Shown here piece by piece: positions 25,558 to 63,553 of a stretch of 64,000 nucleotides of DNA (position 1 is the first letter of the stretch; each line of letters starts with the position of its first letter). The notes beneath the pieces were generated by a model that was not told the origin of the DNA, did not search any database, and saw nothing but the letters and a program-made list of their open reading frames with translations. Origin of the DNA: Rhipicephalus microplus (Eukaryota > Arthropoda > Arachnida > Ixodida > Ixodidae); contig NC_134702.1 of NCBI RefSeq assembly GCF_043290135.1, positions 76,504,917-76,568,916 on the forward strand. The letters run 5' to 3'. A program made the position numbers and the translations under genes.

Positions 25558-25633
25558 CTTTATCGACGCATGTTTCATCAAGGCATTGGCCGACTTGGGT
25601 GACTCTTGGCCACCATCTGCCGGTCGTCTGTAG
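25558..25633 (-). CDS. Evasin-like gene, exon with the GxCxxxxC motif (copy E)
   Basis: A 76-bp exon between a strong acceptor (long T-rich tract, cttctgtttcag) and donor aaag/gtgagc. Read in phase 0 it gives 25 codons plus one base and contains VTQVGQCLDETCVDK, with Cys at exon residue 17 and a second Cys five residues on. Length, frame and Cys positions equal those of the 45830-45905 exon and agree with the exons at 32.4 and 58.8 kb. I infer the part of a class A evasin-like secreted peptide that carries the C-x4-C pair. Partner exons of this copy were not identified. An alternative frame is also open but has no cysteine. Confidence 0.55.
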
Positions 25634-26371
25634 CTGAAACAGAAGCGAAAATAAAAAAATGTTGCTAAAAGCAATGATGGCTCAAAAATACTAATACTAC
25701 GCACTAAAAAGGAGTGACAGTAAAACCAAGTCAACTTGCACCATTCTAAAGCCGAGACTGTTCGAGCTGCATCGTTTTCCAGAGAGGCAGCATGGCGCTA
25801 GATCGTTACTATGTTAGCAAATCGGAAAGGAAATTTTTTTGCTACAAGTGTTTCGTTCACACGAGAGTTCCGCAACAACACTTCATTTTTTACACTCTTT
25901 TTTCGGTGAAACATTACGCATAGTTATGACCACGTTACCACAGGTGAGGGGAGGGGGGTTATTCATTAGAACGCTATGTGTATATAGAATGAGGCGCTGC
26001 GACGTTAACATACATGCATATGCAACGTAAACCAACAGTACTGTACTTTCGGTTTGTTGCTATATACATGTGCCCCAAACACTACATTATTCTTATATTA
26101 CCATGTACTTCTTCTTCGTCTTTCTATCTAATATAAGCATCGCAGTATGTTCGAAACCTAATTAGGTTTGGCGAGCAATGCGTGACATTCTCATTTCTCT
26201 TACAAGTACTTCCAGTAACGCACTTCCAGTTTCCGAATATTCAAAAAAAAAACTTGTAGAAAATTCAACTGGTACAAAATTGATGGTTGTTGCTGTGGTT
26301 AATGCTTGTGCGGATACATATCATGATATCATGTCGGATAATTGGTTTACTTAAGACAGCAACCAACTTAC
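25634..26371. other. Intergenic or intron
   Basis: No feature seen. Should contain further exons of the 25.6-kb gene copy if that copy is complete, but I could not find a C-x3-C exon here. Confidence 0.4.
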
Positions 26372-26471
26372 CGTCCCAATAGCTGTTTAAATTGAATTGC
26401 ATGAGTTCATTGAGAGATTGGACGGTTTCCTTGTAATCGTTGAAGCACCTGGCGGAGCAGATATTAACCAT
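26372..26471 (-). CDS. Possible exon, unassigned
   Basis: Open frame MVNICSARCFNDYKETVQ ending at a consensus donor (gacg/gtaagt). The possible acceptor (ccgccag) is weak, and the phases (2 in, 1 out) do not fit the neighbouring exon at 25558. It lies against a repeat shared with 49.2 kb, so it may be repeat-derived. Not recognised. Confidence 0.25.
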
Positions 26472-26506
26472 ACGCTTATTTTTACGTTGCCTCTTAGATC
26501 CGCTTC

Positions 26507-26815
26507 AGCTTCGCCTTCAAGAGGGGAATGCGATAGCACAATCAGGCTTCGTGCACATCGACGTTTTAATTGCTAACCTAGCTTCGGTTCTCGATGCACA
26601 CTTCAACCATGCCGTAAGAAAACGAAAGACTGTGCGCTAAACATCGGGTGATTTGAGATATCTTATAATGCCCACTGCTTGCGCAGTTGTCAAATGCCCC
26701 TGCGCCATAATTGTTTTTTTTTTTTTGCGAATCAGCGGTGGGCCCACTACGGGTCCGTAAGGCAACACGTGCAATTACGCTGCTGTTCACACATTGTTGA
26801 AGCTTTGGCTGGTGA
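26507..26815. repeat. Dispersed repeat shared with 49208-49440
   Basis: Blocks 'cagcttcgc-t-caaga', 'cgcaata/gcgatagc-c-at-', 'tctcg(a/g)tgca-ac-tcaacca', 'ttttgcgaatcag' and 'cccactac-g-atc/gtccgtaaggcaacacg' occur in the same order in both places. No coding frame is shared. It may be a MITE or part of a duplicated gene flank. Confidence 0.6.
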
Positions 26816-27034
26816 TAAATAATATTATTAAATATGCCAGTTCAAGTATTGTCCTGTTGTCATTTATGCCGAAGACATTATTGGGTCTGACCAACAACTC
26901 GTGGCGCTGAAAGCAGCGCAGTAGCTGGGCTGAAGGACCGTACGGGAGTGTCCGCTCTTTATGTAGGTATGTTTCTCTATGAACGCATGCTTATCTTCCA
27001 AGCGTACTTCGCCCCAGGGATGGGGGGAGGGGGG

Positions 27035-27285
27035 TTAGCTGCATGTGAGTTCATCCTTATCCTTCAGTGGGGAGAATTGTGTGCCTTGGTCTTTAAACAG
27101 AACGATTGTGTTAGCTGTCAGGGCCACAAAGGTCACTTTGCTTGCTGGGCAGGCCTCGTTTGCGAAAAGAGCGCACTTTTCAAACACAGTGATGTAACAA
27201 GTGGGACACTCATTGTTCGCACTCATATCTGTACCTGTTATTACGTTTTCTGCCTCGTTTATGTTTAAACAGTGCGTTAAGCATC
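27035..27285 (-). CDS. Possible terminal exon of a Cys-rich gene
   Basis: The frame ends MSANNECPTCYITVFEKC ... KDKDELTCS and a stop at 27035. With an acceptor at aacagcgtttacag (near 27286) it would start in phase 1, the phase in which the evasin-like C-x4-C exons end. Similar spacing (C-x2-C, then an N-containing hydrophobic stretch and Gly-Ser/Thr-Gln) occurs in an open frame at 44.6-44.9 kb, next to another repeat shared by both places. Weak, and no direct evidence joins it to any upstream exon. Confidence 0.3.
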
Positions 27286-31247: not shown

Positions 31248-31324
31248 CGTATAACTGACGGAAGAGACGAATTTATCACACCCTTCTTCGGGAATGTGGA
31301 CCATCACCGCAGGAATAGCGGGCG
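31248..31324 (-). CDS. Evasin-like gene D, candidate exon 5
   Basis: 77 bp between acceptor gtttaacag and a perfect donor (tacg/gtaagta). It enters in phase 1, matching the exit of the exon at 32382-32469, and leaves in phase 0. The frame is open and reads PAIPAVMVHIPEEGCDKF, supplying one more cysteine. The next exon is unknown; the strongest downstream acceptor (28879) would give an immediate TGA in this phase. Confidence 0.45.
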
Positions 31325-32381: not shown

Positions 32382-32469
32382 GTGTTACAATGCAATGGCC
32401 GTTCTTGCAAATCCCCTCGACGATCAGGTCGGGGACAGTGGGAATGTGCACCGTCCTTTCATAATTGAG
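32382..32469 (-). CDS. Evasin-like gene D, exon 4 (C-x4-C exon)
   Basis: 88 bp from acceptor taatattaccag to donor acac/gtaagt; phase 0 in, phase 1 out; 29 codons. It reads LNYERTVHIPTVPDLIV then EGICKNGHCIVT. The GxCxNGxC pair is the hallmark near the C-terminus of class A evasins and of Salp15-like tick peptides. Following exon 3 directly in frame, it places 21 residues between the DGTPC cysteine and the next one. Class A evasins, as I recall, carry two further cysteines that pair with each other (fifth and eighth); both are absent, which would leave three disulfides. Confidence 0.6.
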
Positions 32470-33120: not shown

Positions 33121-33195
33121 CAGGCATGGAGTTCCATCCGGTAGTTCTTGCGTAGTTTTATTTTTGCAAAAATCGGTACATCGTACAGCCAGGAC
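33121..33195 (-). CDS. Evasin-like gene D, exon 3 (C-x3-C and DGTPC)
   Basis: A 75-bp exon, phase 0 at both ends, after a strong acceptor (ccttctcccctggttaacag) and before a perfect donor (cctg/gtaagt). It encodes VLAVRCTDFCKNKTTQELPD followed by GTPCL: C-x3-C, then 13 residues to the next Cys, with an N-glycosylation site (NKT). This is the core cysteine pattern of class A evasins (C-x14-17-C-x3-C-x11-16-C from memory). Exon 2 at 36.2 kb adds the first Cys 15 residues earlier. Such proteins are secreted in saliva and bind host CC chemokines; binding here is inference only. Confidence 0.62.
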
Positions 33196-36219: not shown

Positions 36220-36281
36220 CCTTCCGTTCCTCCTTGTAGTAGCGTCTACGCATCCGTTCGAATGAGTCCATGGCGTAAAGT
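36220..36281 (-). CDS. Evasin-like gene D, exon 2 (first cysteine)
   Basis: 62 bp between acceptor cgtactgtttcag and donor aagg/gtaagt. Phase 1 in, phase 0 out, open frame FTPWTHSNGCVDATTRRNGR. Its Cys is followed by exactly 10 residues before the exon end, the same as in the exon at 63387-63553 (SCQVSSIETEKN). Joined to exon 3 this gives C-x15-C-x3-C. A signal-peptide exon must lie upstream and was not found; the degraded gypsy at 37.4-43.5 kb lies on that side. Another frame of this exon is open but lacks cysteine. Confidence 0.5.
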
Positions 36282-36488
36282 CTGAAACAGTACGTGCGTA
36301 CGTTACCCTCTGCTCACCAGTTTTCTACACAACCGTAATGCATCATTAAAAATATGGTTACCAGATGGCTCTAGAGCTGCAATGATTATTGCGATAGGAA
36401 TCATATGGAAAATCTCGACGAGATTGTTTTTGCCGTCGCCGCCACCACCATCAATCCCGTTTATATATATTTTATATATATAAACGAT

Positions 36489-36706
<218 letters not shown>

Positions 36707-36769
36707 CTGCAGAATAATAACTTCGGTTGCCACAAGGTTATATGTATCGAAGTAGATAAGTAGATGTGC

Positions 36770-37448
36770 TTTCACATATTTGCTATTCAGCAGACGTCTC
36801 GACAGGAGCCCAATCCTCTTCACGGGCATAATATTATTTACACATTTTCCGCGTCTTCTTATAGCTTCTTGAGGCAGGAGGGAAGAATACAGAAGAAAAT
36901 ATGAAAAATAAACAGGGAAAGAAACGTTCAAAAATAAAAATAAAAAATTTAGAAGAAAAAGCTAGAAAAACACAACGAGATTAAGAAGGGACAGCATCTC
37001 AAGAGAGTAGGGCAAACGTAAAAGAGCCATGCCATCATTGTCAACAATACCTCCCACGCACCTACCCTTTCCCCAGGTGGACAGAGTGACGACCGTTCTA
37101 GTATTGCACCTTCCGGTGCAATCCACTGGCGGCTTGTCTACCTTTGAAGTTCAAGAAAAATCAGTGGGGGAAATTTCAGCGCTTCGAGAGCATGTTGGTG
37201 GCATCAGAAGATAAGAAAAAGTCGGTAATTGTGGTACCGCCATCAATATTGAATATATGCATTGGCTCCCGTCAGCGAAGGAAAAGAGAAGGTGCGTTAA
37301 AAAACTAAGAGAGAGAAAGAATTATAAAAGAAGAAAAAGAATGTGACATCCGGGACCACTTATCTGTGCGTTACGGCTGTGCTTGAAGCGGCAAACCAAT
37401 TCTATATTGTCAGATGCAAACGCTTACAGCTTTGTTAGGGGGTAATAT
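36770..37448. other. Intergenic or intron
   Basis: No feature I can support between the microsatellite and the gypsy LTR. Confidence 0.5.
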
Positions 37449-37611
37449 TGTCACGACGTCAAAACAGAGGTCTTGCCGCAGAGATTGCGACACCAGACGC
37501 AGGTCGGTCTTTTGAACAGAGCGCGCAAGCGAGTTTTTTTTTTCGTCTATTTCATAGTCCTTCATGGCACATGCAGAACTGTCATCGTCTTTCTTGAGCA
37601 AGCACGTAACA
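37449..37611 (-). repeat. 3' LTR of the degraded gypsy
   Basis: Pairs with 43364-43527; shared blocks include cagaggtcttgccgcagaga and tcgtctttcttgagcaagca. Confidence 0.85.
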
Positions 37612-37928
37612 TATGCCTCCCTGTGAAAGAGACATCGTCCCTATGCGCAACCTAGGCGATCTACCAGGCGTATGAAGTGGTAGCACCAACACGATAACTA
37701 GCAGCTAATTAAATCGATAAATACGGTTTCATACTCACGACGTGCACGACTTTGGGTAAATACTTTTGGCACTTAGAACTACAATCAGTGTCGGGAACAA
37801 TTTCGTCATTCACGTCGTTCAAGCGTCGCGTGACGCTTTATGGACCAAAGTACCGTCTTAGCCGTTTTTCAGACAGTGCACGCCGACGTATCGCAGTCCA
37901 GACCCGGACCTTCTCGCCTGGTGTGTAG

Positions 37929-39583
37929 CTAATGAACTTGTGTCGGGGGTCGTACCGTTGTGCATCTTGTGTGACAGATGCGCACGCACGTGAGCTGTCT
38001 GGCTTCCTCGGCGCACTGAGTGAATTCTTCGGCGTCTACAATGATGTCGTCACACTCATGCGGCAACATGGTGACCAGCTCTGTCGTGACTTCGCGACCA
38101 TAGATCAGACTGAACGGTCTCATTCCAGAGGTTTTTCGTCAAGCAGTATTGTAGGCAAAGGTCACAGACAGCAATATCTGACCTAAGTTTTTATGTTCGG
38201 TGTCAACGTGCATGCTTATCATGTCTGTAAGGGTCCTATTGAGGTACTCCAGCAGTCCGTTTGTCTGCGGATGGTATGCAGTTGTTCTCCGGTGAGCTGT
38301 GCCAGTGAGTCTGAGAACCGACTCTAAAAGCTATACGTCGAAAGCAGGTCCTCTGTCTGTAATCACTGTCGGAGTGCCATGCTGAAGGACGTTGTTTTTT
38401 ATGAAGAACTGAGCGGCTTCTGCTGCAGCGCCGCGCTGCATAGCTTTAATCTCCGCATAACGGGAGAGGTAATCGGTGGCCACAATGAACCATCTGTCCC
38501 CTGTTGTGGAAGTTGGAAGGAGACCCAGGAAGTCCATTCTAATCTGGGTGAACGGCTTTGCTGGTGCTTCGACTGGATGTAAAACACCGTCTGGCTTGCT
38601 GGGAGGCACTTTGCGTCTTTGGTAGTTGGAGCAAGTTCGCACGTGATGGTTACCAGCAGCACGTAACTTTGGCCAGTAGTACTTGCATCGTAGTCGGCAC
38701 AATGTTCGGGTGTAGCCTAGATGACCAGAAGTTGCTTCATCATGGCACGCTTCCATAATTTCTTTTCGAAGACAGGCCGGCACGACGAGCAAGTGCGGGT
38801 TACCGGTTGGTGAAAAGTTTTTCTTATAGAGAACATCGTTTTGCAAGCAAAAGAATGGCAGTCCTCTAGCAAATAACCGCGGCACGTCTTTACGTCGTCC
38901 TTCTAAATATTCGATGAGTGGTAACAGCTCAGAGTCACTGCGCTGCTCTCGTGCGATAGTAGCCGTGTTGACAACTCCCAAGAATGCCACGTCGATGTTT
39001 TCGTCATCAGGAGCGACAGGCTCCAGTGCCGACCGTGAGAGACAGTTGTCGTCGGTCTGCCTCTTCCCAGATTTATAAATGATGGTCATGTCGAACTCTT
39101 GAAGCCTTAGGCTCCAGCTGGACAAACGGCCAGATGGATCTTCAAGATAGGTGAGCCAGCACAAAAGTGTTGTTCGCTATCAAACTTGAAGGAGCGGCCG
39201 CACAAATATGTACGAAATTTGATGACCGCCCACACTACGGCGAGACACTCCTTCTCGGTAGTCGAATAGTTCTCCGTGTGAGAGAGAGTCCTGCTGGCGT
39301 GAGCTATTACTATTTCACAGCCATCTTTCCACTGCACCAGAACAGCACCCAGACCTACAATGCTGATGTCAGTGTGAAGTGCTGTAGGGGCTTCCCGGTC
39401 GAAGTGCGAAAGGACTGGAGGTGTTTGCAGGCGCTCTCGTAGTTCATTGAATGCCATTTGCTCCTGTTCACCCCGAAGAAAGGGGACGTTCTCACGTGTG
39501 AGTGGTGTCAATGGCGCCGCAATAGACGAAAAGTGATCGATAAATCGCGGGTGATAGGCGCACCACCTTAAGAAGCATCTCAC
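37929..39583 (-). pseudogene. Gypsy RNase H and integrase remnant
   Basis: RNase H: SHFDREAPTALHTDIS (usual Asp box degraded) and TLSHTENYSTTEKECLAVVW. Integrase: the H-x-C zinc region GHLGYTRTLCRLRCKYYWPK with CSNYQRRK, then the catalytic core RMDFLGLLPTSTTGDRWFIV (first Asp), VITDRGPAFDV (second Asp) and further downstream PFSLIYGREVTTELV. A frame change lies near 39107-39164 and another near 38331. Confidence 0.8.
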
Positions 39584-39652
39584 GGCCTTTTTGTCGCATG
39601 ATGCAGGAAATTACGCTACGGTGTCTATTTCGGCAGGGTGAGGTCGAACGCC

Positions 39653-39950
39653 CTAGTCAATGACAACGTGGCCTAGAAAGCTGAGTTTGTTGAATTCAAA
39701 ATGACATTTTTCTGGTTTTAAAGTACGGCCGGCCGAACGTATGGCTTCGAGGGCGGTCAATAAACGGCTAAGATGTTCTTCGAATGTGCTGAGCATACAA
39801 TAACATCGTCCAGATACACCAAGCATGTTTGCCACTTCAGGCCTGGTAGTACGGTGTCTATGAGACGCTGAGAAGTAACTGCCACCAAGCGCAACACAAG
39901 AAGAAGCACCTTAAGTTCATAAAGGCCATCGGGCGTCACAAAGGCCGTTT
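39653..39950 (-). pseudogene. Gypsy reverse transcriptase, C-terminal half
   Basis: Starts at the MITE junction with [14 protein letters not shown] and continues to LKWQTCLVYLDDVIVCSAHS, which holds the YLDD catalytic box, then SFLGHVV (thumb/connection). The normally following '[12 protein letters not shown]' is corrupted (LLLVLRLVAVTSQR). Confidence 0.8.
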
Positions 39951-40770
39951 TAGGGGCGAAGCTCCTTAAAGTGGCACCCGTTCATCTCTCGTCGTAGTCG
40001 TAGTGCGTAACCAGTCTTACGATTTGACTGCAAGGTGGTGCCGGTGGTAGATTTCTCCTGTGCGTTGTTGAACAATAAAAAATTTGCAGCATGCGCGTTA
40101 CCTAAAAACCGAATTCTCCTGTCCCTGATTCCCAATTAGCAGCCAATGGCATGTCCATTGAGCACTATCTGACAAGAAAGGGTTGCTAGGTTATATTCGC
40201 TGGGCGTAACCTCCATGGTTTTACATCGTGCTTCATAGGATCCTTCCATCCATGGTTTTAGAAAGGTTTAGCGAGCGTTGGGCCGCAGTGCCATGAATAC
40301 AGTGAACTAATATGTACCATGAACTCGAGGTGGTTAAAGAGGAGAAGTAGACACGAAGCGCAAGCCGTAAGAAGTGTGCGTGTGTCAACTCTCGTTTAGT
40401 CCTTGGAATGCCCGCTGAATGGCGGTGCTTTTATATGCGGAATATATGATGAAAAGATGCGAGATGGTGGTACTTGGAGTGTTGACTAGATGGACGAACG
40501 GATACACAGACAGATGCATGGACGGACGCACGGATGGCTGCACGGACGAATGGATGCATGGACGGACGCAGGGGCGGATGCATGGACGAACACAAGGATT
40601 GACACACGGATGGACATGCGGACGCACGAACAGACGAACACACGGCGGGTGGATGCACGCATAGGCGGTGACACAGACTGACGCATGGACCGACGGAAGC
40701 AAGAACGAATGGACGGACAAATGCTTAGCCCCACTCTCCATCATTCACCCCGTGGATATGCTACCTTTCT
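39951..40770 (+). mobile_element. GACGGACG-type MITE (copy a), inside the gypsy
   Basis: About 820 bp. Starts aggggcgaagctcctt, ends near ttagccccactctccatcat and ccgtggatatgct, so the ends are weak inverted repeats (ggggcgaagct/agcttcgcccc type). It contains 'gttgttgaacaataaaaaat', 'gggcgtaacctcc' and the GACGGACG minisatellite (40490-40715). T runs flank both joints. No coding capacity. This copy supplies the empty-site reference for the THAP element in copy b. Confidence 0.8.
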
Positions 40771-41239
40771 TTTCCACCATCTCGGTCGTCAACTTCTATC
40801 TGCCAGTAGCCGCGTCGGAGGTTCATTGAAGAGGAATAGTGGGAATAGTGCGCATGACGCAGTCGATCGAGTGAACTGTCTATGCGAGCTAGTGGATAGA
40901 CGTTTTCTTCGTCTTCTAGGCCAAAACCATGAGTGACGCCCAAGGACTTTTCGAAAGTTGTATGACGACATCCACGAGCATCAATCTGTATTTGCTTCTG
41001 ATCTTCTCGCATTCTTTCAGAGCCACAGAGGGGTTCTGCCGAATCGGTCGCGTGTTGCCTTCAGTAATGATGCGGTGCTCGGTCAATGGTGTTTGCTGGA
41101 TTTTGGACGTATGCGAAAAGCAGTCTTCAAATTGGTGTATAAGTTCAAGCAGGCGCTTTCTATCAGAGAGCGGCAGTGTGAAGCAGGTGTCTATTGACAA
41201 AGTTGTCGAGGCAGGGACAGTCGTGTCGTCCGGTGACAA
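40771..41239 (-). pseudogene. Gypsy reverse transcriptase, N-terminal half
   Basis: ETIHRF-like approach replaced by LLELIHQFEDCFSHTS, then HRIITEGNTRPIRQNP and, after frame changes, NEPPTRLLADRS/LRRGYWQIEVDDRD before the MITE. It continues in sense across the MITE into TAFVTPDG, fixing the insertion point within a known motif. Confidence 0.75.
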
Positions 41240-42116
41240 GGCAAAGCAATCTCTGGCTTGGTCTGCATCATATTAGTAAGCAATTGCTGTACCCTTCTGG
41301 ATTTGACGGCGCTCGTTGCTGAAGCTTGTGAAGAGCACTTCTGCCTGTCCATCAGTAAGCGCCAGGACGCCTCTCGCGATGGAAATGCCTGCGTAAGCAA
41401 AAGAGCAACTGTGTGCTCCGCTGTCACATCCTTATAGCAAGGCCACCTACTGGACACCGACACAAGGCAGCAGCGTCTCGGTGGGAGTATCACATCGTCG
41501 GCTATTCGCAAACGACCGCGTGGTTCGTCGCTGCTGTTGTCGGCATACGAATGTGCACAAGAGATCAGTATACGTTGAGGGATGTTGATAACAGCGCCAT
41601 GATCTTGAAGAACATTCATGCCCAAATTAGCGCTTTACAGCAGTCTGGCAACAGGACAATAGTGGCCACAAAGCTAGAATCCCCGACGCGAAGTCGAGTG
41701 GTTCGTTTAACCGTGGGAGTCATCAGCTGATCCCCAGCACTCCTTATGTGCGGCCCTGTTCACGGTGTCTTACCTCTCTAAAGTGTTCGGCGTGCTCTTG
41801 TAGCATGATCGAGAAGTCCGCGCGTGTGTCGACCAGTGCTGGAACTTTATATCCGTCAATGAAAACGCCAAGATCGGCACGTACAACTTTATCGGCTTTA
41901 GTATTCGTCGTCGCTATCGTCATACATTCTTGTGATGATAGGGGGAACTTTTCGGTGTCCCGCCGACGATTGGCAACCTTGCCACTGGAGGTCGCAGCAG
42001 TTTGTTTCCCGGGCGCGGGCTACGCGAACAGCCTCTGGTGACGTCCTCGTAGCTCCGAGGGTTCGGGAATTCACGGTTACGCGCAGGTGACGGAGATTGC
42101 CAGTGACGCGGTTGAG

Positions 42117-43334
42117 TTAATTTGCCAGTTGACAGTTGATCGGCATCGTGGCCGCGACAGTCTTCAAAGCGGAAAGAAGTGGGACGAGAAAATTTCTTGA
42201 ACCCGGAATCACCAAGCAATAGCGGGCAATGTGACCTGGTTCTCCGCAGTGGAAGCAAATGGGTCGATGGTCAGCCATGCGCCTTAAGTAAGTTCGGCGA
42301 ACTGGTAGTCGTCTCATAAAATCCCGGTGCCACCAAAGTACGACAAGGGGTCGTGGCTGGAAGGGCTTAACCACAAATGACGGTGAAAGATGACGGACCG
42401 CATCAGCGTAGCTCGCTGGATGTGGCTGAGGACTTAGCATGGGTGGTGTAACGGCTTGCCTCAACTCCTGGCGGACGATTTCAGCAACAGATGCAACAGG
42501 TGGTTGGGTAGGAGGAACGCATAGGGCCCGAAGTTCCTCATGCAGTATTTTCCTGATCATTTGTCGCAGGGAACTTTCGCAGACGGCAGAGTTCTGAGCT
42601 GCAGCGCTTACTGCCGTGTGGTTTCGCAGGTGGTCAGAGTGTCGGCATCATTGTTGCAGTGCGCGCTCGATGATAGTCACCTCTCTTATGAATTCATCTA
42701 CTGTTTTAGGAGGATTTCGTACTAGGCTCGCAAACACCGGTTCTTTAACACCCTGCATTAGTTAATGCACATTATTCGCCTCGGGCATGTCGGGGTCAGC
42801 TCGTCAAAACAGATGGATCATACCCGCTGTGTACATGGCAGTTGTTTTGTTGAGTTTTTGCACGTGGATCTCAATTAGTTGTTGTGTGCGATCCCGTCAG
42901 TCCAAGTTCAAAAATGTGGCGAGGAGCTTTCGACGGAAATCTTCCCAAGATTAGAAAGTCGCTTCGCGGTTCTCATACCACGTGCGAGCGCTATTTTCCA
43001 CTGCAAAATATGCACAGCTAAGATTGTGCTGGTCACTCCAGTGGTTGGATACAGCGACCCGTTCAAACTGTTTGAGCCAGTCCTCGACATCCTCGTACTG
43101 TTCTCCACAGAAAACTTCAGGAACGCGAGGATTTTCAAGAGTCGCCTGCGAGGGAAGAGTGGTCTGCGATTGAAGGGTAACCGTGGATGCGGTAGGAGCT
43201 GCCATGCTGGCAAGAGGCAGAACAGGTGCGGACTCCGGACTTAGTAGGCGCCGACTAAATCGGTTCACCGGAGTCGTGACGAGGGGCTGAGTCTCTGTAC
43301 TAGTTGAACGGGTCCGAGCAAGACTGTCCTGCAT
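42117..43334 (-). pseudogene. Gypsy gag remnant with zinc knuckle
   Basis: The capsid region VFCGEQYEDVEDWLKQFERV lies at the 43.1-kb end; the nucleocapsid CFHCGEPGHIARYC (CCHC knuckle, intact) lies at about 42.24 kb. Frameshifts separate them. Downstream, a protease remnant reads VDTRADFSIMLQ near 41.83 kb, where the catalytic DTGA/DTGS glycine is replaced by Arg. Confidence 0.8.
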
Positions 43335-43363
43335 CAGGTTGTAGGCTCCAGCACCTCCACCAG

Positions 43364-43527
43364 CGTCACGACGTCAAAGCAGAGGTCTTGCCGCAGAGAT
43401 TGGAATACTAGGACCAGGTCGGTCTCTTTAATAGAACGCGCAAGCGAATTCTTCTTTTTCGTTCATTTCATAGTTCCTTGTGGCACATGCACAAGTGCCA
43501 TCGTCTTTCTTGAGCAAGCACGTGACA
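43364..43527 (-). repeat. 5' LTR of the degraded gypsy
   Basis: Matches the 3' LTR with roughly a tenth or more of positions changed by eye, which supports an old insertion. Confidence 0.85.
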
Positions 43528-43734
43528 ACCTTATTGTCACAATGGGAGGCTAGGGGCAGAGGACTGTTTAGAGAGAAACGTTTGCGTCTTTTAGTGATCG
43601 TAACGCTGACAGAGTGCCTGGGTGTACACTTATTTCGTTTTTTATCGTATTGAATTTGTAGATAAAGTAAGATTCCCCTTGTTACCTTTCTTTGATTGTT
43701 CTAAAATTATTTTCTAATAGTGTACCCTGATGTC

Positions 43735-44290: not shown

Positions 44291-44432
44291 GATGATAGCT
44301 TACGGGTATTTATGAGTAAATGTATGTGTAAATGTGTGGGTGTGGGTGTAAACGATATTATGCTTTGAAAAAGACGGGGCGTCCGTCAAAACGTCAGCTG
44401 AATAAACAGTTGTTATGTGAAACCATATCTAC

Positions 44433-45829: not shown

Positions 45830-45905
45830 CTGCTGTGACACAGGTCCCGTTACGACAGACTCCGGTTCTTTCGAGGTACTTGCTGTTGTTACTCTCAGTT
45901 GGTAG
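45830..45905 (-). CDS. Evasin-like gene C, exon 4 (C-x4-C exon)
   Basis: 76 bp, phase 0 in (acceptor gctgtggtcattag), phase 1 out (donor gcag/gtacgt); 25 codons: LPTESNNSKYLERTGV then CRNGTCVTA. It has the GVCRNGTC motif with N-glycosylation sites NNS and NGT. Together with exon 3 at 46962-47054 it gives 17 residues between the fourth-type Cys and this pair, inside the class A evasin range as I remember it. The downstream exon is not certain; an open frame at 44.6-44.9 kb has a similar C-x2-C start to the 27-kb candidate but does not match in phase. Confidence 0.62.
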
Positions 45906-46961: not shown

Positions 46962-47054
46962 AGCACACAGGCGTCCGTCGTTGAGCATCGTTTTGTTCCA
47001 AGTGTGGTTCCTCGAATCATAGCAGCTCGCGATGCATCCAACAGCCACTTGAAG
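46962..47054 (-). CDS. Evasin-like gene C, exon 3 (C-x3-C exon)
   Basis: 93 bp, phase 0 at both ends, with branch-point-like ttctaac and acceptor ttatacgtgcag upstream and donor gct/gtacgt. Reads LQVAVGCIASCYDSRNHTWN then KTMLNDGRLCA: C-x3-C-x18-C, two N-glycosylation sites (NHT, NKT) and an 'NDGRLC' block in the position of 'PDGTPC' in gene D. Exon order, phases and Cys positions match gene D, and exon 4 follows 1.06 kb downstream. High glycosylation is usual for class A evasins. Confidence 0.65.
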
Positions 47055-47976
47055 CTGCACGTATAATCGTTAGAAGTACATGTAAAACGCCAATATTATG
47101 TGCTCAATCGATGCCGCATGCACAGGTATTGCGTATCTTGCGTTTCACGATCGATGGGCAAAAAGAGTGAAGGAAGCAGAATGCAATAAAATACTACTTG
47201 TTCTTGTTTTTTTAGTTCGCTACGCTAGCCCTTCAAAACATCCAGAAAGTATTATAACATTCAAGAGGGCGCCGGGAACACATGAGTTCATTTCTTTTAA
47301 AATAGAACTTCTTTCAAAGATATCGCAATAGTCTTCTTATGTATGTCACTGTTCTGGTGCTTCATGTACGACCAATAAGAACTAGTTGTTTTTTTTATTT
47401 TTATCTAATCTTACTACACTAAAAATAAGCGCTGTTGGAAAACCCTGTGAATAGGTGTAGTGGAGCATAAAAAAGAAGTGATTCCTATCCTTGGTGGAAG
47501 AAGTGGTAAAAAGACACGAGCAAGAGCCAAAGCTTATGCTGATATTCGGATAGGCTTCAGCGCAATTCAGACTACGACCAAGCAGATACTCAGAACACAG
47601 ACGAGTGATGATATATAACGTATGTTGAATATTGCAACTATAAAATGCGTCCTTGTTGCCAAACTAAAGCCCAGGTAAACCAAAGATATGCAACTGTATT
47701 TTCGTTTACTATCTGATAACGTAGGCAACTGATCGAGTTTACATATATACATCAATGGTGCCTATTGTCATCTAGGCAATTGTTTAAACACAGAGTTTTA
47801 GTCACCTTTGTGTTTATAGACGTTGTATTCACCTGACAGTGGTAGGTGTAGGGAGTGTGCACTGAAAAAGAAATGGGATAGAAAAGATGCAACCCCACCG
47901 TGCATGATTTTTTTCTTTCTAAAAATTTCTTGCAGAAATACCATGAATTCTGACCAGCATAATCCCCCAAGGTAAC

Positions 47977-48044
47977 TTGTGCAATGATTCCTACACATAC
48001 GAAGAGATGCTGGTACCAGGAGCGATAAATTTCTAAAACTAGCG
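47977..48044 (-). pseudogene. Damaged evasin-like C-x4-C exon
   Basis: After a good acceptor (ccctgtcttatttcatcag) the frame ASFRNLSLLVPASLRMCRNH places Cys at exon residue 17, exactly as in the intact 25-codon exons. However, one extra base follows the acceptor, so the phase is 2 and not 0; the Cys pair is C-x3-C and not C-x4-C; and the donor (gttacc) is poor. I read it as a decayed paralogue. Confidence 0.4.
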
Positions 48045-50444: not shown

Positions 50445-50677
50445 ATATGTGGGGTTTAACGTTCCAAAACCATCACATATGATTATGAGAGACGCCATAG
50501 TGGAGAGCTCCAGAAATTTTCACTACCTGAGGTTCTTTAACGTGCACTGAAATCTGAGCACATGGGCCTACAATATATTTGCTTGTATCAAGAATACAGC
50601 CACCGCAGCTGGGATTTAATCCCACGTCCTGCGGGTCAGCAGCCGAGTACCTTAGCCACTAGACCACTGCAGCGGGA
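50445..50677 (-). mobile_element. Ruka-like SINE
   Basis: Reverse, full length: tRNA head at the high-coordinate end ('ccgctgcagtggtctagtgg' in sense, 'tgacccgcaggacgtgggat' for the anticodon/box B side), body 'cacgttaaagaacctcaggt' and end 'atggttttggaacgttaaac'. Confidence 0.85.
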
Positions 50678-50710
50678 CAGCTTACTATAAGTCGTTGAGT
50701 GATTATAATA

Positions 50711-50818
<108 letters not shown>

Positions 50819-51021
50819 TCCGAGGGTGGATCAATGGGCTCAACTTCATAGTTGACAGGAGATGTTTGCCGCACCACACGGTAGGGGCCATGGTATTTCG
50901 ACGAAAGCTTCGGGGAAAGACCGGGAGGGGTAGACGGGACCCAGAGCCAAACCAGCATTCCTGGGTTATAGTGTACAGTAGACGCAGAGGAATCGTGGTC
51001 AGTTTTCTGGCGCCATTGGTC

Positions 51022-54000
51022 TTATGCGGTAAATGAGCGAGCGAGTTGACGACACTCTTCGGCATAAGCAGCTGCTTCGGAAACAGGCGTCGCTTCGGAA
51101 ACATCAGGCCTGTAAGGGAGAATGGTGTCCATGGAGCATGATGGCTCACGTCCGCACAGGAGGTAGAAAGGAGAAAAGCCAGTGTTTGTTTGTGGCGCAG
51201 AGTTGTACGCGTACGTGACAAAAGGGAGCACTTGGTCCCAATTAGTGTGGTCGTCAGAGGCGTACATGGCAAGCATATCTCCAAGGGTACGGTTAAAGAG
51301 TTCTGTCATGCCATTGGTTTGGGGATGGTATGCTGAGGATTTCCTATGGACAGTGCGACATGCCTTGAGTAGCTCGTCGACGGCGTTCGAGAGAAACACG
51401 CGTCCACGGTCACTGAGTAATTCACGAGGTGCACCGTGTCGCAAAATGAGATGGTGAAGAAGAAAGGACGCAACGTCTTTCGCAGTGGTAGCAGGCAGCG
51501 CAGATGTTTCAGCGTAGCGTGTTAAATGATCCACGGCGACGATAATCCACCGGTTGCCTCGAAGAGAGTTGGGTAGAGGACCATAAATATCAATTCCGAC
51601 GCGGTCGAATGGTCTCGCTGGGCAGGTTAAGGGTTGCAAAGGGCCAGCAGTGCTGTGAGAAGGCGTCTTGCGTCGTTGACACATGGTGCATGACCGAACG
51701 TACTGGCAAACGTGCCGATACATGCCGCGCCAGTAGTATCTTAGACGAAGGCGAGAGTAAGTCTTAAATACTCCGGCGTGGCCACACTGGGGGTCATCGT
51801 GAAAGGCAGCGCAGATGTCCGAACGCAAATGACGAGGGATGACAAGGAGCCACCTACGGCCATCCGTCACGTAATTGCGGCGATACAACAAGCCTTCACG
51901 GACAGCAAAGTATCTTGCTTGACGAGAGAGGGAGCGTGAAGTCGTTTCTGACGAACTGTGAGAGAGGACGTCGAGCAAAGAATTGATCCAGGGATCCTTG
52001 CGCTGTTCGGATGGCATGTACGTGATGCTCAACGATGACGAATCGCAAATGGCAGTTGATAAGCAGGCAAGGTCAGGAGGCAGTGGAGAACGGGATAGTG
52101 CATCGGCGTCTGAATGTCTGCGTCCTGAGCGATAAACAACACGGATGTCGTATTCCTGAAGGCGTAAAGCCCAACGAGCGAGGCGGCCAGTAGGATCTTT
52201 CATGGGCGCTAACCAGCATAAGTCATGGTGATCTGTGACAACATCAAACTGGCGTCCGTAAAGGTAGGTGCGAAATTTTCCTATAGCCCAAATGATAGCC
52301 AAGCACTCCTTTTCCGTGACGGAATAGTTGGACTCTGCCTTCGTTAGTGTACGGCTGGCATAGGCGACAACGTACTCGTCGCAGCCATCCTTGCGTTGAG
52401 CGAGAATGGCACCGAGGCCGACACCGCTTGCATCCGTGTGAATTTCAGTCGGTGCATTGGGATCGAAGTGGCGGAGAACTGGCGGAGAAATGAGTAGCCG
52501 GCGTAGCGCCGTGAATGCCTCATCGCAGTGGGAATTCAAGCCTGAGAGGTCCGCGCTACGGGAGAGAAGCTGAGTCAGAGGGGCAATTCTAGAGGCAAAG
52601 TTGCGAATGAAACGCCGAAAATAGGAACACAAGCCTATGAAACAACGAAGCTCCTTTAGGGTAGTAGGCTTGGGGTACTCGGCAACGGCACGCAGTTTGG
52701 CAGGATCTGGCGATATTCCTTCTTTTGAAACGACGTGGCCGAGAATTGTGAGTTTGCGGGCGCCAAAACGACATTTCTTGAAGTTAAGTTGCAACCCGGC
52801 TGCCGTAAGGCACTGGAGAACTTGTTCCAGACGGGAAAAATGAGTTTCGAAATCCGCCGAGAATACAACTATGTCGTCTAAATAGCAAAGACAGATGTGC
52901 CATTTAAGTCCCCTGAGGACACTGTCCATCATTCTTTCAAAAGTCGCAGGCGCATTGCAAAGACCGAAGGGCATTACATTAAATTCATATAAGCCGTCAG
53001 GGGTCACAAACGCCGTTTTTGGACGGTCTGGTTCAGCCATTGGTACTTGCCAATATCCAGAGCACAGATCCAGTGAAGAGAAAAACTCCGCACCTTGAAG
53101 GCAATCCCAGGCGTCATCAATGCGTGTCAGGGGATAAACATCCTTGCGTGTGATGTTGTTTAGTCGACGATAATCCACGCAAAACCTGATGGAGCCATCC
53201 TTTTTTCGCACGAGGACCACTGGCGAAGCCCAAGGACTGTGTGAGTGCTGAATAACACCACGTTGCAGCATCTCGTCGACGTGTTGAGTGATGACGTCAC
53301 GCTCGGCCTGCGAGACGCGGTAGGGGCGCTGACGAAGTGGAGTATGATGACCGGTGTCGATATGGTGAGCGACAACTGACGTGCGTCCCAAGGGAGGTTG
53401 TCCGTGGTTGAAGGAGGCGCGGAAACGGTCAAGTAGTTGAATGAGCTGATTGCGCTGGTCTTGCGTAAGGCCGGTGTCTACGCTGCGCAACAGAACGTCT
53501 TCGTCAGGTAGTGAGGGCGCGGTGCCAGCTGTGACAGCATCCACGGACATCGGTGTCGTATCAGAACGGGCATCGAAAGGAAAGATGTCATCATAAGTGT
53601 CAAGACTCCCAATGCATTCGCCATGCAATAAGGTAGCGGGACAAGGGAACGGATTGCACACGTACACGGCACTGGAGCCATCGGCAAGTGTTATGACGAC
53701 AAACGAGACGACAAGGTTCCGGCGACGAGCGCATTCTTGTGACGGCATAAATAGGGCAGTTGAATTAGAAACGGAGTTGCACAAAAGAGATACCGCGGTG
53801 ACCGAAAAAGCAGAAATGACGACGTCAGCGGCGACGATCATCTTTTTGGGTGAGCGAGGGAGATCTATGAATGTCGTGCTGAATGGAAACAAAACGAGTT
53901 GAGCACGAACGCAGTCGACAACCGCATGATTAGCGGAAAGAAAGTTCCATCCCAGGATGATTTCATGAGACGCATGCGGAAGGACGACAAATTCAACGAT

Positions 54001-54198
54001 GTAAAGCACTCCTTGAATCACAACACGAGCAGTGCATGTGGCAGAAGGTTGGACGTGTTGCGAACTCGCCGTACGTAAAGAAATTTCAACCAGTGGAGTC
54101 GTCACTTTGTTCAGTTTGCGGCATAACACTTCACTGATTATACAAATAGCGGCACCTGTGTCGACAAGAGCAGTTGTGGCGAAACCGTCCACAAACAC
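51022..54198 (-). CDS. Gypsy pol: protease, reverse transcriptase, RNase H, integrase
   Basis: A 1,058-codon frame. Protease [14 protein letters not shown] (residues 8-21) and ILGWNFLS. Reverse transcriptase: [50 protein letters not shown] and [10 protein letters not shown] (YLDD). RNase [15 protein letters not shown] and [20 protein letters not shown]. Integrase: H2C2 region ([26 protein letters not shown]) and core [41 protein letters not shown] (third acid is Glu). The catalytic residues appear complete. The frame extends upstream of 54198 to overlap the gag end in another frame, suggesting ribosomal frameshifting near ggaggaaaac. A TAA at 51022 cuts the tail; the same frame continues to about 50820 with [16 protein letters not shown] and [19 protein letters not shown]. 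Confidence 0.93.
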
Positions 54199-54278
54199 GG
54201 CAATCTCGTTAGGGGGCGATAGATGAGGCCTTGGAAATTTCGTCGGTGGCGCAGCTCTTGCCTCAGGAACTGCGACTG

Positions 54279-55502
54279 TTAGTTTTCCTCCTGGTCGTGG
54301 TTGGAACGGCGAAGCATGGGGGAAGGAGACCGAAGACGGGGTGAAGGAGATCGACGTCGGCTGAAGTCTGGTCGACGTGAGCGGGGGTCATGTGAATCAG
54401 GTGTCACATGCGATTCTGATGGCCGAGGTATGTTGCCGGAATGCTGCACATCATTAAAATAGAATCCACGGCGACGACAGTAGCGCGCGACATGTCCTGG
54501 AATACCACAGTTGTAGCAGACGGGCCGGTTATCCGGAGTACGCCAAGAGTTTACATGTGCTCGAGGTGGTGGAATGGGCCGATTTACCGGATAAACTGAA
54601 ACTGGTGACCTGTAGTAGTTGGTGGCTGGACTGTTTGAAGGGAGCGGCGGTTGGGCAGGAGGTCGGCGGACGGCTTCTGCATAAGTCAGCGGTGCAGCCA
54701 CTGATATTGGGGATGTGGGCGAAGGGAGAGCCTCGGCAACTTGCGTCTGAATAACACGGCGAAGTGAGTGGTCCAGTGTTGTGGGGGTCTCGTTGATGGT
54801 GGCGACAAGAGAGAGCTGTCGAGCAACTTCCTCCCGGATGTACTGTTGAATTTGAGGCATTAACACGCTGTAGTCAGAGCCACTGCTTTTGCACTCCAAG
54901 GCCGAAATATCAGCTGTCTGTGTATTAGCGCGACGTGTAGAAACTCGTTGCTTGCGCAGCTCATCGAAACTTTGACATAACTGAATCACGGCCGTGATGG
55001 TCTGTGGGTCTTTGGCCACAAGCATATGAAAAGCGTCGTCATCAATGCCTTTCATTATGTTCTTTATTCTGTCAGCCTCCGTCATCCTGGTATCAACTCG
55101 CCTACAGAGGCTGATCACATCCTCAATGTAGCTCGTGAAGCTCTCACCATTTCGCTGAAATCGTCCCCGCAGTCCCAGTTCAGCACGAAGCTTACGCATG
55201 GCTGGACGACCGAAAAACGAGGTGACGGCCTCTTTGAAAACCGACCAGGTGGGGATGTCGGCTTGGTGGTTGGTGAACCATAGGTTGGCCAAATCCGTCA
55301 AGTAGAAGATGACGTGAATCAGCTTCGCAGGGTCATCCCACTTGTTAATCGCGCTGGCATGCTCGTACTCTGCCAGCCAGTCCTCGACATCTTGATCTTC
55401 AGTGCCGTTGTATACTGGTGGGTCACGCAGACGAAGTACACCAGAACACATGACAGGTGGCAGCGTGGAAGAACCTTGTGGGGGATCGACGCGCTCGGTC
55501 AT
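54279..55502 (-). CDS. Gypsy gag with CCHC zinc knuckle
   Basis: Likely start [16 protein letters not shown] at 55502 (an upstream in-frame ATG at 55580 lies in the leader). Capsid: [60 protein letters not shown]. Nucleocapsid: [16 protein letters not shown], one CCHC knuckle, followed by an Arg/Ser-Pro-rich tail ending DQEEN. Packages the element RNA into particles. Uninterrupted 407 codons from that start, unlike the degraded gypsy at 42-43 kb, which has the same domain order. Confidence 0.9.
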
Positions 55503-55727
55503 CGCGGACTGAGATGGTAGCTTACGGCTGCGGAGCTCCAGGACGTTACCCAGCACTTTTCCACCAAATGCAACGAGCAAGGTTGCGTAAAAACACAGGT
55601 TATTATTCCAGAAACGTTAGCCGCAACAAGCTGGTACAGGCAGGAACCCGGCAAGCACGAGCCACACACGGACGTCAACGTCTTCTTTCACGCTGGCACA
55701 GAGCTGGCGCCACTATGCTTCGGTACA

Positions 55728-56941
<1,214 letters not shown>

Positions 56942-58747: not shown

Positions 58748-58856
58748 CAGGTCGGGGTAACTTGTAGATAGTGAGGTTACGTCTATCACATTCTCGATTA
58801 CGACAAGCGCCAACGGCGATGCTGCCTCCATCTTCTGTGTTGCTTCTAATATAGGA
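58748..58856 (-). CDS. Evasin-like gene B, C-x4-C exon
   Basis: 109 bp, phase 0 in (acceptor gtcctcacctaaaacag), phase 1 out (donor cctg/gtgagt), the same phases as the homologous exons. 36 codons containing EDGGSIAVGACRNREC, then DRRNLTIYKLPRP; NLT is a glycosylation site. A different frame of the same exon starts with an ATG (MEAASPLALVVI) but has no cysteine, and I consider it a shadow. The candidate partner exon is 60349-60593. Confidence 0.55.
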
Positions 58857-60348: not shown

Positions 60349-60593
60349 CAGGCATGGTGTTCCATCCGCGACGCTGCCGTTCTGCGCGAGAATTCCCCCT
60401 GGTGTGACAGTTGTCGTCGGGACAGGGGAATCTGTCGCCTGGACGAAGCTTTCGTTGTCACTGTTGGTAGACATATCAAATGCGTCCAATTCGGTTTCAC
60501 TCGTTGCCTCGGCACTCCTGGCCAATATCTCTAGTGCTTCTTCGCTCTCGTAGGAGTCGTCAGAGTAGTAATTAGCGCCTTGATTGCCGCTGA
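60349..60593 (-). CDS. Evasin-like gene B, acidic N-terminal exon
   Basis: 245 bp, phase 1 in (acceptor gtgctcctgctcag), 81 codons, ending ADGTPCL directly before gttaga in phase 0, the same boundary as PDGTPCL/gtaagt in gene D. It starts SGNQGANYYSDDSYESEEAL, an acidic Tyr-bearing stretch as in tyrosine-sulfated evasin N-termini, followed by a long Ser/Thr/Asp-rich region. The usual C-x3-C before DGTPC is replaced by TVTPGGILAQNGSV, so three cysteines are missing. Either this copy is decayed, a fused exon, or a distinct subtype. The frame also continues past the donor for 29 codons. Confidence 0.45.
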
Positions 60594-61420: not shown

Positions 61421-61424
61421 GGCT

Positions 61425-61680
61425 TCCACACTCACACAACGCATGCGCAACTCGCCTCCTTACCTCTCTCCAACAGCTGCGCGTTACTCTCTCAAACTCT
61501 CTTCTACCACCTGCTGGCGCTTACTCCCCCTCTCTCTCCTTTAGGCATCCCTCCCGGTGGCGTTGACACCCCCATTGCGCATGCGCGTCTCTACCCTCTC
61601 TCTCACTTACCTTTCCAACGCTCTCCTTCTTTCTACCTTTCCAACGCTCTCCTTCTTTCGCCTCGCAACGCCGACGTATG
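61425..61680 (+). repeat. Pyrimidine-rich repeat with internal tandem copies
   Basis: C/T-rich block with two copies of 'ctttccaacgctctccttct' (about 61610-61660) and two of '(c/t)gcgcatgcgc'. It may be the end of a dispersed repeat. Directly upstream of the MITE copy c. Confidence 0.6.
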
Positions 61681-61827
61681 TTAAAGTTAGCTAGAGGGTA
61701 CTCTGGTGCTGCGATTTATCTGCGACCATGGTAGTTATGGTTATGACATGCATTTGCCTAGTCTTCGTGCTGGCGGGTTGCGAATCGCACTTGTGGCTTT
61801 GTTTATTGGTGTGTTTCGGTTTCTATT

Positions 61828-62440
61828 AAGGGGCGAAGCTCGTAGGGCGTGGGTCTCTACATCTTATGGGGTTCGTTGTTGGTGATTTACGTCGCCACTG
61901 GTGGCACATACCCACTCTAGTGTGTCACAGGGGATGCGAAATGGGAAATGGTGGTACTTGGATGTTCACCAGATTGACGCACGGACGGAAGGACAGACAG
62001 ACAGACTAGCAGACTGAGAGACGGATGGACGGACGCGCGGAGGTACGGACGGCTGGACGCACGAACGAACGGGCAGACTTATGGGCGGACGCATGGAGGG
62101 ACGCATGGGTGTATATATTATGACAATATGAAACCAACCACGATCTGAGGAACATGCATTGACCTAGTATTGACAAATTTTCCACTGAAACATTTACAGG
62201 AACCGCTCACCCTTCATTTTACGGATCATAAAGCCATCATAATTAAGGGACATCGCAAGGCATCCATCGTCTATGATAACAAATAAAAGTTGCTTTCTAA
62301 ACATACACATACAGTGTTTCTCATGATGTCTTTACACTATGATCGACTAGGCGAATTACACACGGAAGATTCCCGGTTTTACCGATGATCCTCTCCGGAG
62401 CTTTGCCCACTTTTCATCATTCACCCCGTAGATATGCTGT
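61828..62440 (+). mobile_element. GACGGACG-type MITE (copy c)
   Basis: Starts aaggggcgaagct, contains the gacgga/ggacgc minisatellite (61975-62110) and ends ccggagctttgcccac...ccccgtagatatgctg, so the ends are inverted repeats of each other (gggcgaagct/agctttgccc). Shares the ending and the minisatellite with copies a and b but not their middle part. Confidence 0.75.
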
Positions 62441-63386
62441 GATTTTTTAAAGGAAAAAACGAACCTATTGAACTTTGGGAGCTGCTTTTAAATGGTGATT
62501 TGAAAAGGTAAAGGTGTTGAAGCGCAACCTTTGCCGATTGCTGTTTCGTGACAAAGCAACTTGAAGCCACGCGAAGACAGAAGGAACGTTAAGCGAACCC
62601 GTCGCGTCTTTATATGATGGAAGACGAGTATGTACAGAGAATTCGCGATTGACCCGATCATCCCCAAACCATAGTCTTTTAACATCATTTACTTTGTGGA
62701 TATGGCAGTGGTTTTTTTTTTTTGCTTCTTATTCGTGTGTATCTTTTGACATCATTTTTATGGCGGAAATGCGTCCATGAAGTCTAGCTGGACAACTGCA
62801 TAAAATACTTTTGAAGTAAAATGAAGTAAAGACACCCCAAATGCTGACAAAGAACTTTGTGGTGTCTTCAACTCTTTCTTGAGTCCGTATTTGTATACTG
62901 TGTCTTTGAGAATACAAGTGTAATTTTTTAAACCCTTTTTGTCGAGGCAAAGCAACCAACCCGAACGTATTGTACATGCTCTTATGTAAGCGCTTGTTCC
63001 AGGCATTGTTTAGGTCACCTTAATAAGTTTGATATCCTTAAAGACTGATGCATTATTATGCTATCTTTTGCTGTCATTCCATGTACCCTGATTTTATTTC
63101 TGATAGCTAAATTTCATGTAGTAAATATCTCATACTTATTTGTTGGAGTGCTTCATTTTCACAGATAGATCTTTTGATACAGATAAGTTTAATGCCAGTC
63201 GTGCTCGCTCTGCCATTTGTGCTTGGCTTATACAAAACAGAGCAATGATATATCTAGGAAGCGCTCTTGGACCTTGCCCAACACTGCAAAGAATAATACT
63301 TGTTATGGAAGCACGTTATTAGTAGGGTATCAACCAGAGTGTATGCCGGTAAACTGTTCATGATAGCAAGATCCTTCAAATCTTAC
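62441..63386. other. Intergenic or intron
   Basis: No exon found. 62640-62720 contains a dispersed-repeat end (tttgtggatatggcagtg) also seen at 15870. Confidence 0.4.
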
Positions 63387-63553
63387 ATTTTTTTCAGTTT
63401 CAATAGATGATACTTGGCACGACCTTGCAGTGGCTTTGGGGCCTCCTGGCACAGGTTCTGCGTCACTTAACGTTGGTAGATGAAAATATTCTTCACTGTG
63501 ATCCTCTAGATGGTCACCGCTGACACATACGAGCAGTAAACTTAGGAAGAGTG
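63387..63553 (-). CDS. Evasin-like gene A, signal-peptide/acidic N-terminal exon
   Basis: 167 bp: phase 1 in, after branch-point-like ttctaac and acceptor actgctttcag; phase 0 out at donor aaaat/gtaaga. 55 codons: hydrophobic LFLSLLLVCVSG (end of a signal peptide, likely cleavage after the Gly), then acidic DHLEDHSEEYFHLPTLSDAE with one Tyr, then TARSCQVSSIETEKN with the first cysteine 10 residues before the exon end, exactly as in exon 36220-36281. This is the expected start of a class A evasin. Exon 1 with the initiator ATG should lie at higher coordinates, perhaps outside the window; later exons were not found. Confidence 0.58.

What the first reader, a model, noticed from the sequence alone, without database searches (positions are those of the whole stretch)
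25558..63553. Unannotated cluster of class A evasin-like genes on the minus strand, scattered by transposons
Short exons with good splice sites share intron phases and cysteine spacing. C-x4-C exons (phase 0 in, 1 out): 25558-25633, 32382-32469, 45830-45905, 58748-58856, and a damaged one at 47977-48044. C-x3-C exons (phase 0/0): 33121-33195 and 46962-47054. Exons of the first-Cys/N-terminal type (phase 1/0): 36220-36281, 63387-63553 and, with altered cysteines, 60349-60593. Joined in order, gene D gives C-x15-C-x3-C-x13-C-x21-C-x4-C. Chance agreement of phase, length and Cys position at so many places is unlikely. That the family is evasin and not Salp15/ixostatin is inference from spacing.
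Basis: partly seen in the sequence, partly recalled or inferred. Interest (0 to 1): 0.92.

Follow-up and report, generated by a model that had tools for sequence, protein, structure and literature searches.

The report
Six-cysteine evasin-like tick gene cluster
This stretch of what is likely a tick genome holds exons of at least five genes that occur again, in the same order, nearby on the chromosome; the exon pairs compared are conserved as protein code, and the genes are predicted to make small salivary proteins, related to evasins but missing at least one of their cysteines, that would likely blunt the host's immune signals.

Summary
The exons are real. Seven of ten have a copy 162-179 kb away on the same chromosome and strand.

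The class A evasin reading is partly right. Gene D's middle exon matches Pfam EVA_Class_A as well as equivalent exons of this genome's own eight-cysteine evasin genes, with the same intron phases. But the "C-x4-C" exon aligns as C6-x4-C7, not C5-x4-C6: the fifth cysteine is missing in 4 of 4, so the Cys8 motif is not met. Gene B leans, weakly, to the basic-tail family (TSGP1). An extra conserved splice donor follows C7.

Best reading: a six-cysteine group between class A evasins and basic-tail proteins, predicted to be secreted and to bind host proteins, CC chemokines most likely for gene D. No RNA or binding data were available.

The parts
63387..63553 (-). N-type exon (phase 1/0): hydrophobic stretch, acidic stretch, one Cys near the end; not placed in a gene
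   Evidence: open with AG/GT; copy search did not complete
60349..60593 (-). gene C: long acidic N-type exon (phase 1/0) that ends in the C4 motif; lacks C1-C3
   Evidence: 50% identical copy over 80 residues at C3:76391034
58748..58856 (-). gene C: C6-x4-C7 exon (phase 0/1)
   Evidence: 53% copy at C3:76387696; register
47806..47861 (-). gene B: candidate first-Cys exon (phase 1/0)
   Evidence: splice and Cys scan only
46962..47054 (-). gene B: C-x3-C exon (phase 0/0), basic-tail-like spacing
   Evidence: copy in L049, dN/dS 0.11; TSGP1 14.1 bits, under cut-off
45830..45905 (-). gene B: C6-x4-C7 exon (phase 0/1)
   Evidence: 59% copy at C3:76383109; donor kept 6/6; register
36220..36281 (-). 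gene D: first-Cys exon (phase 1/0)
   Evidence: no copy test
33121..33195 (-). gene D: C-x3-C exon (phase 0/0), evasin-A-like
   Evidence: EVA_Class_A 22.2 bits; 76% copy at C3:76375962; dN/dS 0.25
32382..32469 (-). gene D: C6-x4-C7 exon (phase 0/1)
   Evidence: 76% and 62% copies at C3:76371948 and 76310325; donor kept 6/6; dN/dS 0.30 for the nearer copy
31248..31324 (-). gene A: candidate first-Cys exon (phase 1/0)
   Evidence: splice and Cys scan only, one of several candidates
   Evidence: 85% copy at C3:76354520
25558..25633 (-). gene A: C6-x4-C7 exon (phase 0/1)
   Evidence: 84% copy at C3:76351049; register
   Evidence: copies 85%, 72% and, weakly (E 3.4), 54% at C3:76340343, 76298392 and 76232898

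Best explanation
The window holds exons of at least five block-duplicated gene units whose compared exon pairs are conserved as protein code, and which are predicted to encode small secreted six-cysteine proteins of the class A evasin / basic-tail superfamily that would likely act in tick saliva by binding host CC chemokines. The predicted chain runs: an N-terminal exon with C1, a middle exon with C2-x3-C3...C4, then an exon with C6-x4-C7, followed by a conserved splice donor and so, by inference, a further exon for the C-terminal tail, which I did not find. By the published evasin A pairing (C1-C3, C2-C6, C4-C7, C5-C8) the kept cysteines would still make three disulfides, and C5-C8 is the pair that class A2 evasins do without. 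Binding is inferred, most plausible for gene D and least for gene B, which leans to basic-tail proteins. Block duplication multiplied the set; likely LTR-type elements now lie between genes. My separate estimates: real protein-coding exons 0.95, this superfamily 0.85, CC-chemokine binding for gene D 0.35.
For: Copies of nine window exons in the same order and strand 162-179 kb away (order of seven computed). dN/dS 0.27 over four exon pairs, p 4.4e-7, against 0.95 and 1.17 in the wrong frames. EVA_Class_A match of gene D's middle exon and its copy, 22.2 and 24.0 bits, against 18.9 and 21.2 for two true A1 exons. Same phases as the A1 genes for the middle exon (2 of 6 A1 stretches scanned gave one) and the next acceptor. 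Register C6-C7 in 4 of 4. Donor after C7 identical 6/6 in 4 of 4 pairs while the next 80 bases fall to 31-49% (random 34%). Pairing and A2 features from PMC9779611, PMC7322545 and PMC11081419, passages.
Against: No exon of the window passes a curated family cut-off. The C6-C7 exons have no Pfam match; in PDB profile searches fibrillin-1 scored above Evasin P1243 (E 0.13 against 0.49), and with three more copies fibrillin and enteropeptidase did. No start-codon exon and no last exon was found for any gene. C8 is unresolved: read without splicing, gene B and its copy show a Cys 7 and 8 residues after C7, close to the evasin C7-x8-C8, so for B the donor may not be used. Unspliced, D and its nearest copy stop after two codons, which would also fit a last exon. 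Gene C lacks C1-C3 in the exon seen. No expression or binding data.
Confidence: 0.5

Rival explanations
1. The cluster is an offshoot of the basic-tail secretory family (BTSP), likely acting on the lectin complement pathway or coagulation through its core and a C-terminal tail, not on chemokines.
For: BTSP has six Cys paired C1-C3, C2-C5, C4-C6, the same frame as evasin A without C5-C8. Gene B and its copy match TSGP1 weakly (14.1 and 14.7 bits) and share spacing and a Trp with L051, a TSGP1-like gene of this genome with the same upstream phases. The donor after C7 leaves room for a tail exon.
Against: C4 to the next Cys is 17-21 residues, against 9 in BSAP1 (Cys positions) and 9 in L051. Gene D matches EVA_Class_A and not TSGP1. 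L051 has its tail in the same exon and no donor there. No tail was found.
Confidence: 0.3
2. They are ordinary class A1 evasins, with C5-x4-C6 in the exons listed and C7 and C8 in an exon still to be found.
For: C4-x17..18 in A, B and C fits the published C4-C5 gap of 17-20; Pfam match of gene D.
Against: All four exons score negative as C5-C6 and positive as C6-C7. C5 to C8 lie on one exon in 14 of the 16 over-cut-off A1 places read here. Gene D's gap of 21 and gene B's C3-x18-C4 are outside the motif.
Confidence: 0.08
3. The window's block is decaying: the genes are mostly dead copies cut up by mobile elements, while a copy elsewhere works.
For: Partner exons of C and E not found, one broken candidate (47977-48044), likely LTR-type elements between genes.
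Against: The exons listed as parts are open; dN/dS is 0.27 between window and copy, though constraint on one side or before silencing could give part of that.
Confidence: 0.08
4. The exons are chance patterns in an AT-rich, repeat-rich stretch.
For: The C-x4-C type alone is about as frequent on the plus strand under the loose rule.
Against: Ordered copies with protein-level constraint.
Confidence: 0.01

Closest known systems
Class A1 evasins (Pfam PF19429 EVA_Class_A; Evasin-1, PDB 3FPR)
   Same: C1-C2 and C2-C3 spacing (15-16, 3), C3-x13-C4 in A and D, DGTPC-like end of the middle exon in D, phase 0/0 middle exon, phase-0 acceptor of the next exon
   Different: C5 missing, C8 not seen, C3-x18-C4 in gene B, extra donor after C7
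Class A2 evasins of Ixodes
   Same: six Cys; C5 (and perhaps C8) absent
Basic-tail secretory proteins (BTSP; Pfam PF07771 TSGP1)
   Same: six-Cys frame, final C-x4-C, exon phases 1/0, 0/0 and phase-0 acceptor as read in L051; gene B spacing and Trp
   Different: C4 to the next Cys is 17-21, not 9; no tail seen; L051 has no donor after its C-x4-C

Membership tests
Class A1 evasin | Cys8 motif C-x(14,17)-C-x3-C-x(11,16)-C-x(17,20)-C-x4-C-x(4,5)-C-x8-C (PMC8569228) | tested here: not met
   C5 missing in 4 of 4 exons; no C8 found in a spliced exon; B has C3-x18-C4
Class A1 evasin | match to Pfam EVA_Class_A over its cut-off | tested here: inconclusive
   gene D middle exon 22.2 bits, cut-off 27; true A1 middle exons are under it too, 18.9 and 21.2; A, B, E middle exons no match
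Class A1 evasin | gene structure of the A1 genes in this genome | tested here: inconclusive
   middle exon 0/0 and phase-0 acceptor shared; terminal exon with C5-C8 and stop not shared
Class A evasin | binds CC chemokines | not testable with these tools
   needs protein
Class A evasin | signal peptide | tested here: inconclusive
   hydrophobic stretch at the start of exon 63387, but no start-codon exon identified
Class A2 evasin | lacks C5 and C8, a disulfide pair (PMC7322545) | tested here: inconclusive
   C5 lacking in 4 of 4; C8 undecided, last exon not found
Class A2 evasin | found in prostriate ticks only (PMC8569228) | tested here: inconclusive
   16 over-cut-off class A places in this genome, at least 14 of A1 type, point to a metastriate; species not identified
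BTSP | six Cys with C4-x9-C5-x4-C6 as in BSAP1; spacing may vary (PMC9779611) | tested here: inconclusive
   C-x4-C met, C4 gap 17-21
BTSP | match to Pfam TSGP1 over its cut-off | tested here: not met
   gene B 14.1 bits against 22.6; other window exons no match
BTSP | lysine-rich or acidic C-terminal tail (may be absent) | tested here: inconclusive
   last exon not found
Salp15 / ixostatin | Pfam match to a Salp15-type family | tested here: inconclusive
   none listed for 13 window exon pieces at E up to 10, but the pieces are short and HMMER's filters drop weak matches

The most novel reading that the evidence does not exclude
The cluster is a living link between two tick saliva families joined so far, in the papers I saw, by predicted folds: one block of tandem paralogues holds an evasin-A-like gene (D) and a basic-tail-like gene (B) with the same intron phases. 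It would be a six-cysteine stem group in a metastriate tick, from which classical evasins arose by gaining the C5-C8 disulfide and merging the last exons.
Probability: 0.3. Interest if true: 0.75.

Novelty: new variant of a known kind. Interest (0 to 1): 0.55.

Why it matters
[quoted passage not shown] Shared intron phases and a mixed paralogue block give an independent, gene-level test of that link. [quoted passage not shown]

Tried and rejected
Last exons: many candidates after each C6-C7 exon, none convincing. That the C6-C7 exons are terminal was considered: in D and its nearest copy the unspliced frame stops after two codons, in the third copy it does not, and the donor is kept 6/6 in all; I keep the donor, with doubt for gene B. 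37058-37141 was rejected because it lies inside a likely LTR-type element. 47977-48044 was rejected as unsupported. A loose scan for a C-x4-C partner of exon 5233 found none. The N-exon scan of the A1 genes gave nothing with strict splice rules and nothing usable with loose ones. Protein database search with exon 60349: 1 candidate, none significant. NCBIfam with five exons: nothing. PDB search with exon 33121 alone: nothing. Of six TSGP1 genome matches only L051 read like a gene of the family. Species identity was not established.
Full report
Setting. The window is C3:76504917-76568916 of a 3.26 Gb genome in 1202 contigs. That it is a tick is inferred from Pfam EVA_Class_A matches (37 at E up to 10, 16 of them over the cut-off; 0 of 14 control genomes) and from the published statement that evasins appear to be unique to ticks (PMC8569228). 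At least 14 of the 16 carry the last cysteines of the eight-Cys type on one open stretch (six, eight; L021 and L023 were not picked up by the pattern). The same paper reports class A1 from metastriate ticks only, so a metastriate is likely.

Observation. The ten exons were read from the sequence. All have AG/GT borders; nine are open in the phase stated, the damaged one is not. A mechanical scan found C-x3-C exons on the minus strand at 46962, 37058, 33121, 28764 and 5233; the plus strand gave none and 100 shuffles gave 0.05 on average, 1 at most. The C-x4-C type alone is not clearly above chance under the loose rule (6 places on minus, 5 on plus; shuffles mean 1.3, max 4), so for those exons the copies are what counts.

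Copies. Searching the genome with single exons gave, besides the exon itself: 33121 to C3:76375962 (76%); 45830 to 76383109 (59%); 32382 to 76371948 (76%) and 76310325 (62%); 60349 to 76391034 (50%); 5233 to 76340343 (85%), 76298392 (72%) and 76232898 (54%, E 3.4); 25558 to 76351049 (84%); 58748 to 76387696 (53%); 28764 to 76354520 (85%). The copy of 46962 lies beside that of 45830 in L049. All of these are on the minus strand. A script confirmed that seven of the nine keep their order; the other two, 46962 and 28764, were not in it, but their positions fit. The offsets are 162-179 kb. I read this as a duplicated block C-B-D-A-E with at least one further partial copy (D at 76310325, whose middle exon is also there; E at 76298392). 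Weaker matches elsewhere: 25558 on C10 (57%, E 0.20 and 0.26) and C7 (52%, E 4.2), 33121 on C7 (62%, E 1.1), 32382 on C7 (50%, E 1.5), 58748 at C3:127.1 Mb (48%, E 8).

Coding constraint. For four exon pairs (D and B, two exons each) the summed counts give dN/dS 0.27, Fisher p 4.4e-7; the same pairs read in the two wrong frames give 0.95 and 1.17, codons that are stops left out. Single pairs: B 0.11 and 0.60, D 0.25 and 0.30. The third D copy was left out of the sum because synonymous differences are near saturation. Exon identity is 65-82%; flanks are 26-59%, except 72% just upstream of D's middle exon.

Register. In six A1 last-exon pieces of this genome the order is C5-x4-C6-x4/5-C7, then C8. 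Scored by BLOSUM62 without the cysteines, the window's four C-x4-C exons give means of -11.8, -10.8, -4.7 and -12.7 as C5-C6 and 6.0, 13.6, 19.2 and 6.4 as C6-C7 (L002, with a five-residue gap, was left out of the second register). A PDB profile search also aligns them to C6-C7 of Evasin P1243, weakly (E 0.49; fibrillin-1 0.13 and an uncharacterized protein 0.45 scored better). With three more copies in the profile, evasin fell to E 4.6, behind fibrillin and enteropeptidase, so that search is no support on its own. The published evasin A pairing is C1-C3, C2-C6, C4-C7, C5-C8 (PMC9779611, passages), and some Ixodes class A members lack the fifth and eighth Cys, a pair (PMC7322545, passages). 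The window's set would keep three whole pairs, if C8 is absent too, which is open.

Gene structure. A1 genes of this genome have a C-x3-C exon in phase 0/0 that ends one or two residues after C4 (L015 and L019, 2 of 6 stretches scanned) and a last exon that starts in phase 0 and holds C5 to C8 and a stop soon after. The window genes share the middle exon's phases and the next acceptor's phase. They differ in a splice donor three residues after C7 (A, B, D) or thirteen (C), phase 1; it is identical 6/6 in the four pairs compared (D with two copies, the copies with each other, B with its copy), while the next 80 bases fall to 31-49%. A TSGP1-like gene, L051, has an N exon 1/0, a C-x3-C exon 0/0 (TSGP1 18.5 bits, cut-off 22.6) and a C-x4-C exon in phase 0 with its tail in the same frame; its other two exons gave no Pfam match. 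So the intron after C4 looks shared by A1, the window group and L051, and the one before C2 by all three in phase. The phase of the A1 first-Cys exon at its start was not determined.

Family. Gene D's middle exon matches EVA_Class_A (22.2 bits; its copy 24.0), as strongly as true A1 exons (18.9, 21.2). Gene B's matches TSGP1 only, weakly (14.1; its copy 14.7), and shares spacing and a Trp with L051, though identity is only 19%. The middle exons of A and E and of the third D copy match neither. The middle-exon profile's only PDB match up to E 10 is Evasin-1, E 0.79.

Function. Secretion is predicted: the 63387 exon begins with a hydrophobic stretch followed by an acidic one, and 60349 is acidic with tyrosines, as reported for evasin N termini; but no start-codon exon was identified, and 63387 has no confirmed copy. 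CC-chemokine binding is an inference from gene D's likeness to evasin A. The basic-tail alternative (complement, coagulation) is the main rival.

Setting of mobile DNA. Likely LTR-type elements lie between D and B (36439-44676; integrase and zinc-knuckle frames) and between B and C (50660-55899; gag and pol frames), with repeats at both ends; a LINE-type pair of frames (reverse transcriptase; endonuclease) lies at 5993-9018 beside exon 5233. The copy block was not read for such elements, so scattering by them is plausible, not shown; the two blocks span 55 and 51 kb from C to E.

Novelty. Eight searches of the paper library on evasin gene structure, clusters, tick genomes, six-Cys metastriate evasins and basic-tail/evasin ancestry listed no paper that I recognised as describing this gene arrangement; beyond the listings I read parts 1-3 of 5 of PMC8569228, section 25 and passages of PMC9779611, and passages of PMC10349104, PMC8548845, PMC7322545, PMC7396615, PMC8294578, PMC11081419, PMC5622192 and PMC13113040. 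I call it a new variant of a known kind.

Noticed in passing
36439-44676 and 50660-55899: Two likely LTR-type retrotransposons between the genes, with repeats at both ends and integrase, gag and pol frames.
   Followed up: partly
50601-50673, minus: tRNA match in Rfam (31.7 bits) at the edge of the second element.
   Followed up: no
5993-9018, minus: LINE-type frames, reverse transcriptase and endonuclease, beside exon 5233.
   Followed up: no
16537-17715, minus: Frame with an RNase H domain, likely from another retroelement.
   Followed up: no
G000:C3:103.7-111.9 Mb; C7:86.5 and 113.5-115.3 Mb; C2:76.9 Mb: Over-cut-off class A evasin exons group on C3 and C7, far from the window; weaker ones at C7:43.8-50.4 Mb.
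   Followed up: partly
L051:1362-2606: A TSGP1-like (basic-tail) gene with the window genes' upstream intron phases and a Thr/Ser-rich tail after its C-x4-C.
   Followed up: partly
G000:C10:65810745 and 66536496: Weak matches (57%, E 0.20 and 0.26) to exon 25558 on another contig, perhaps a distant branch of the family.
   Followed up: no
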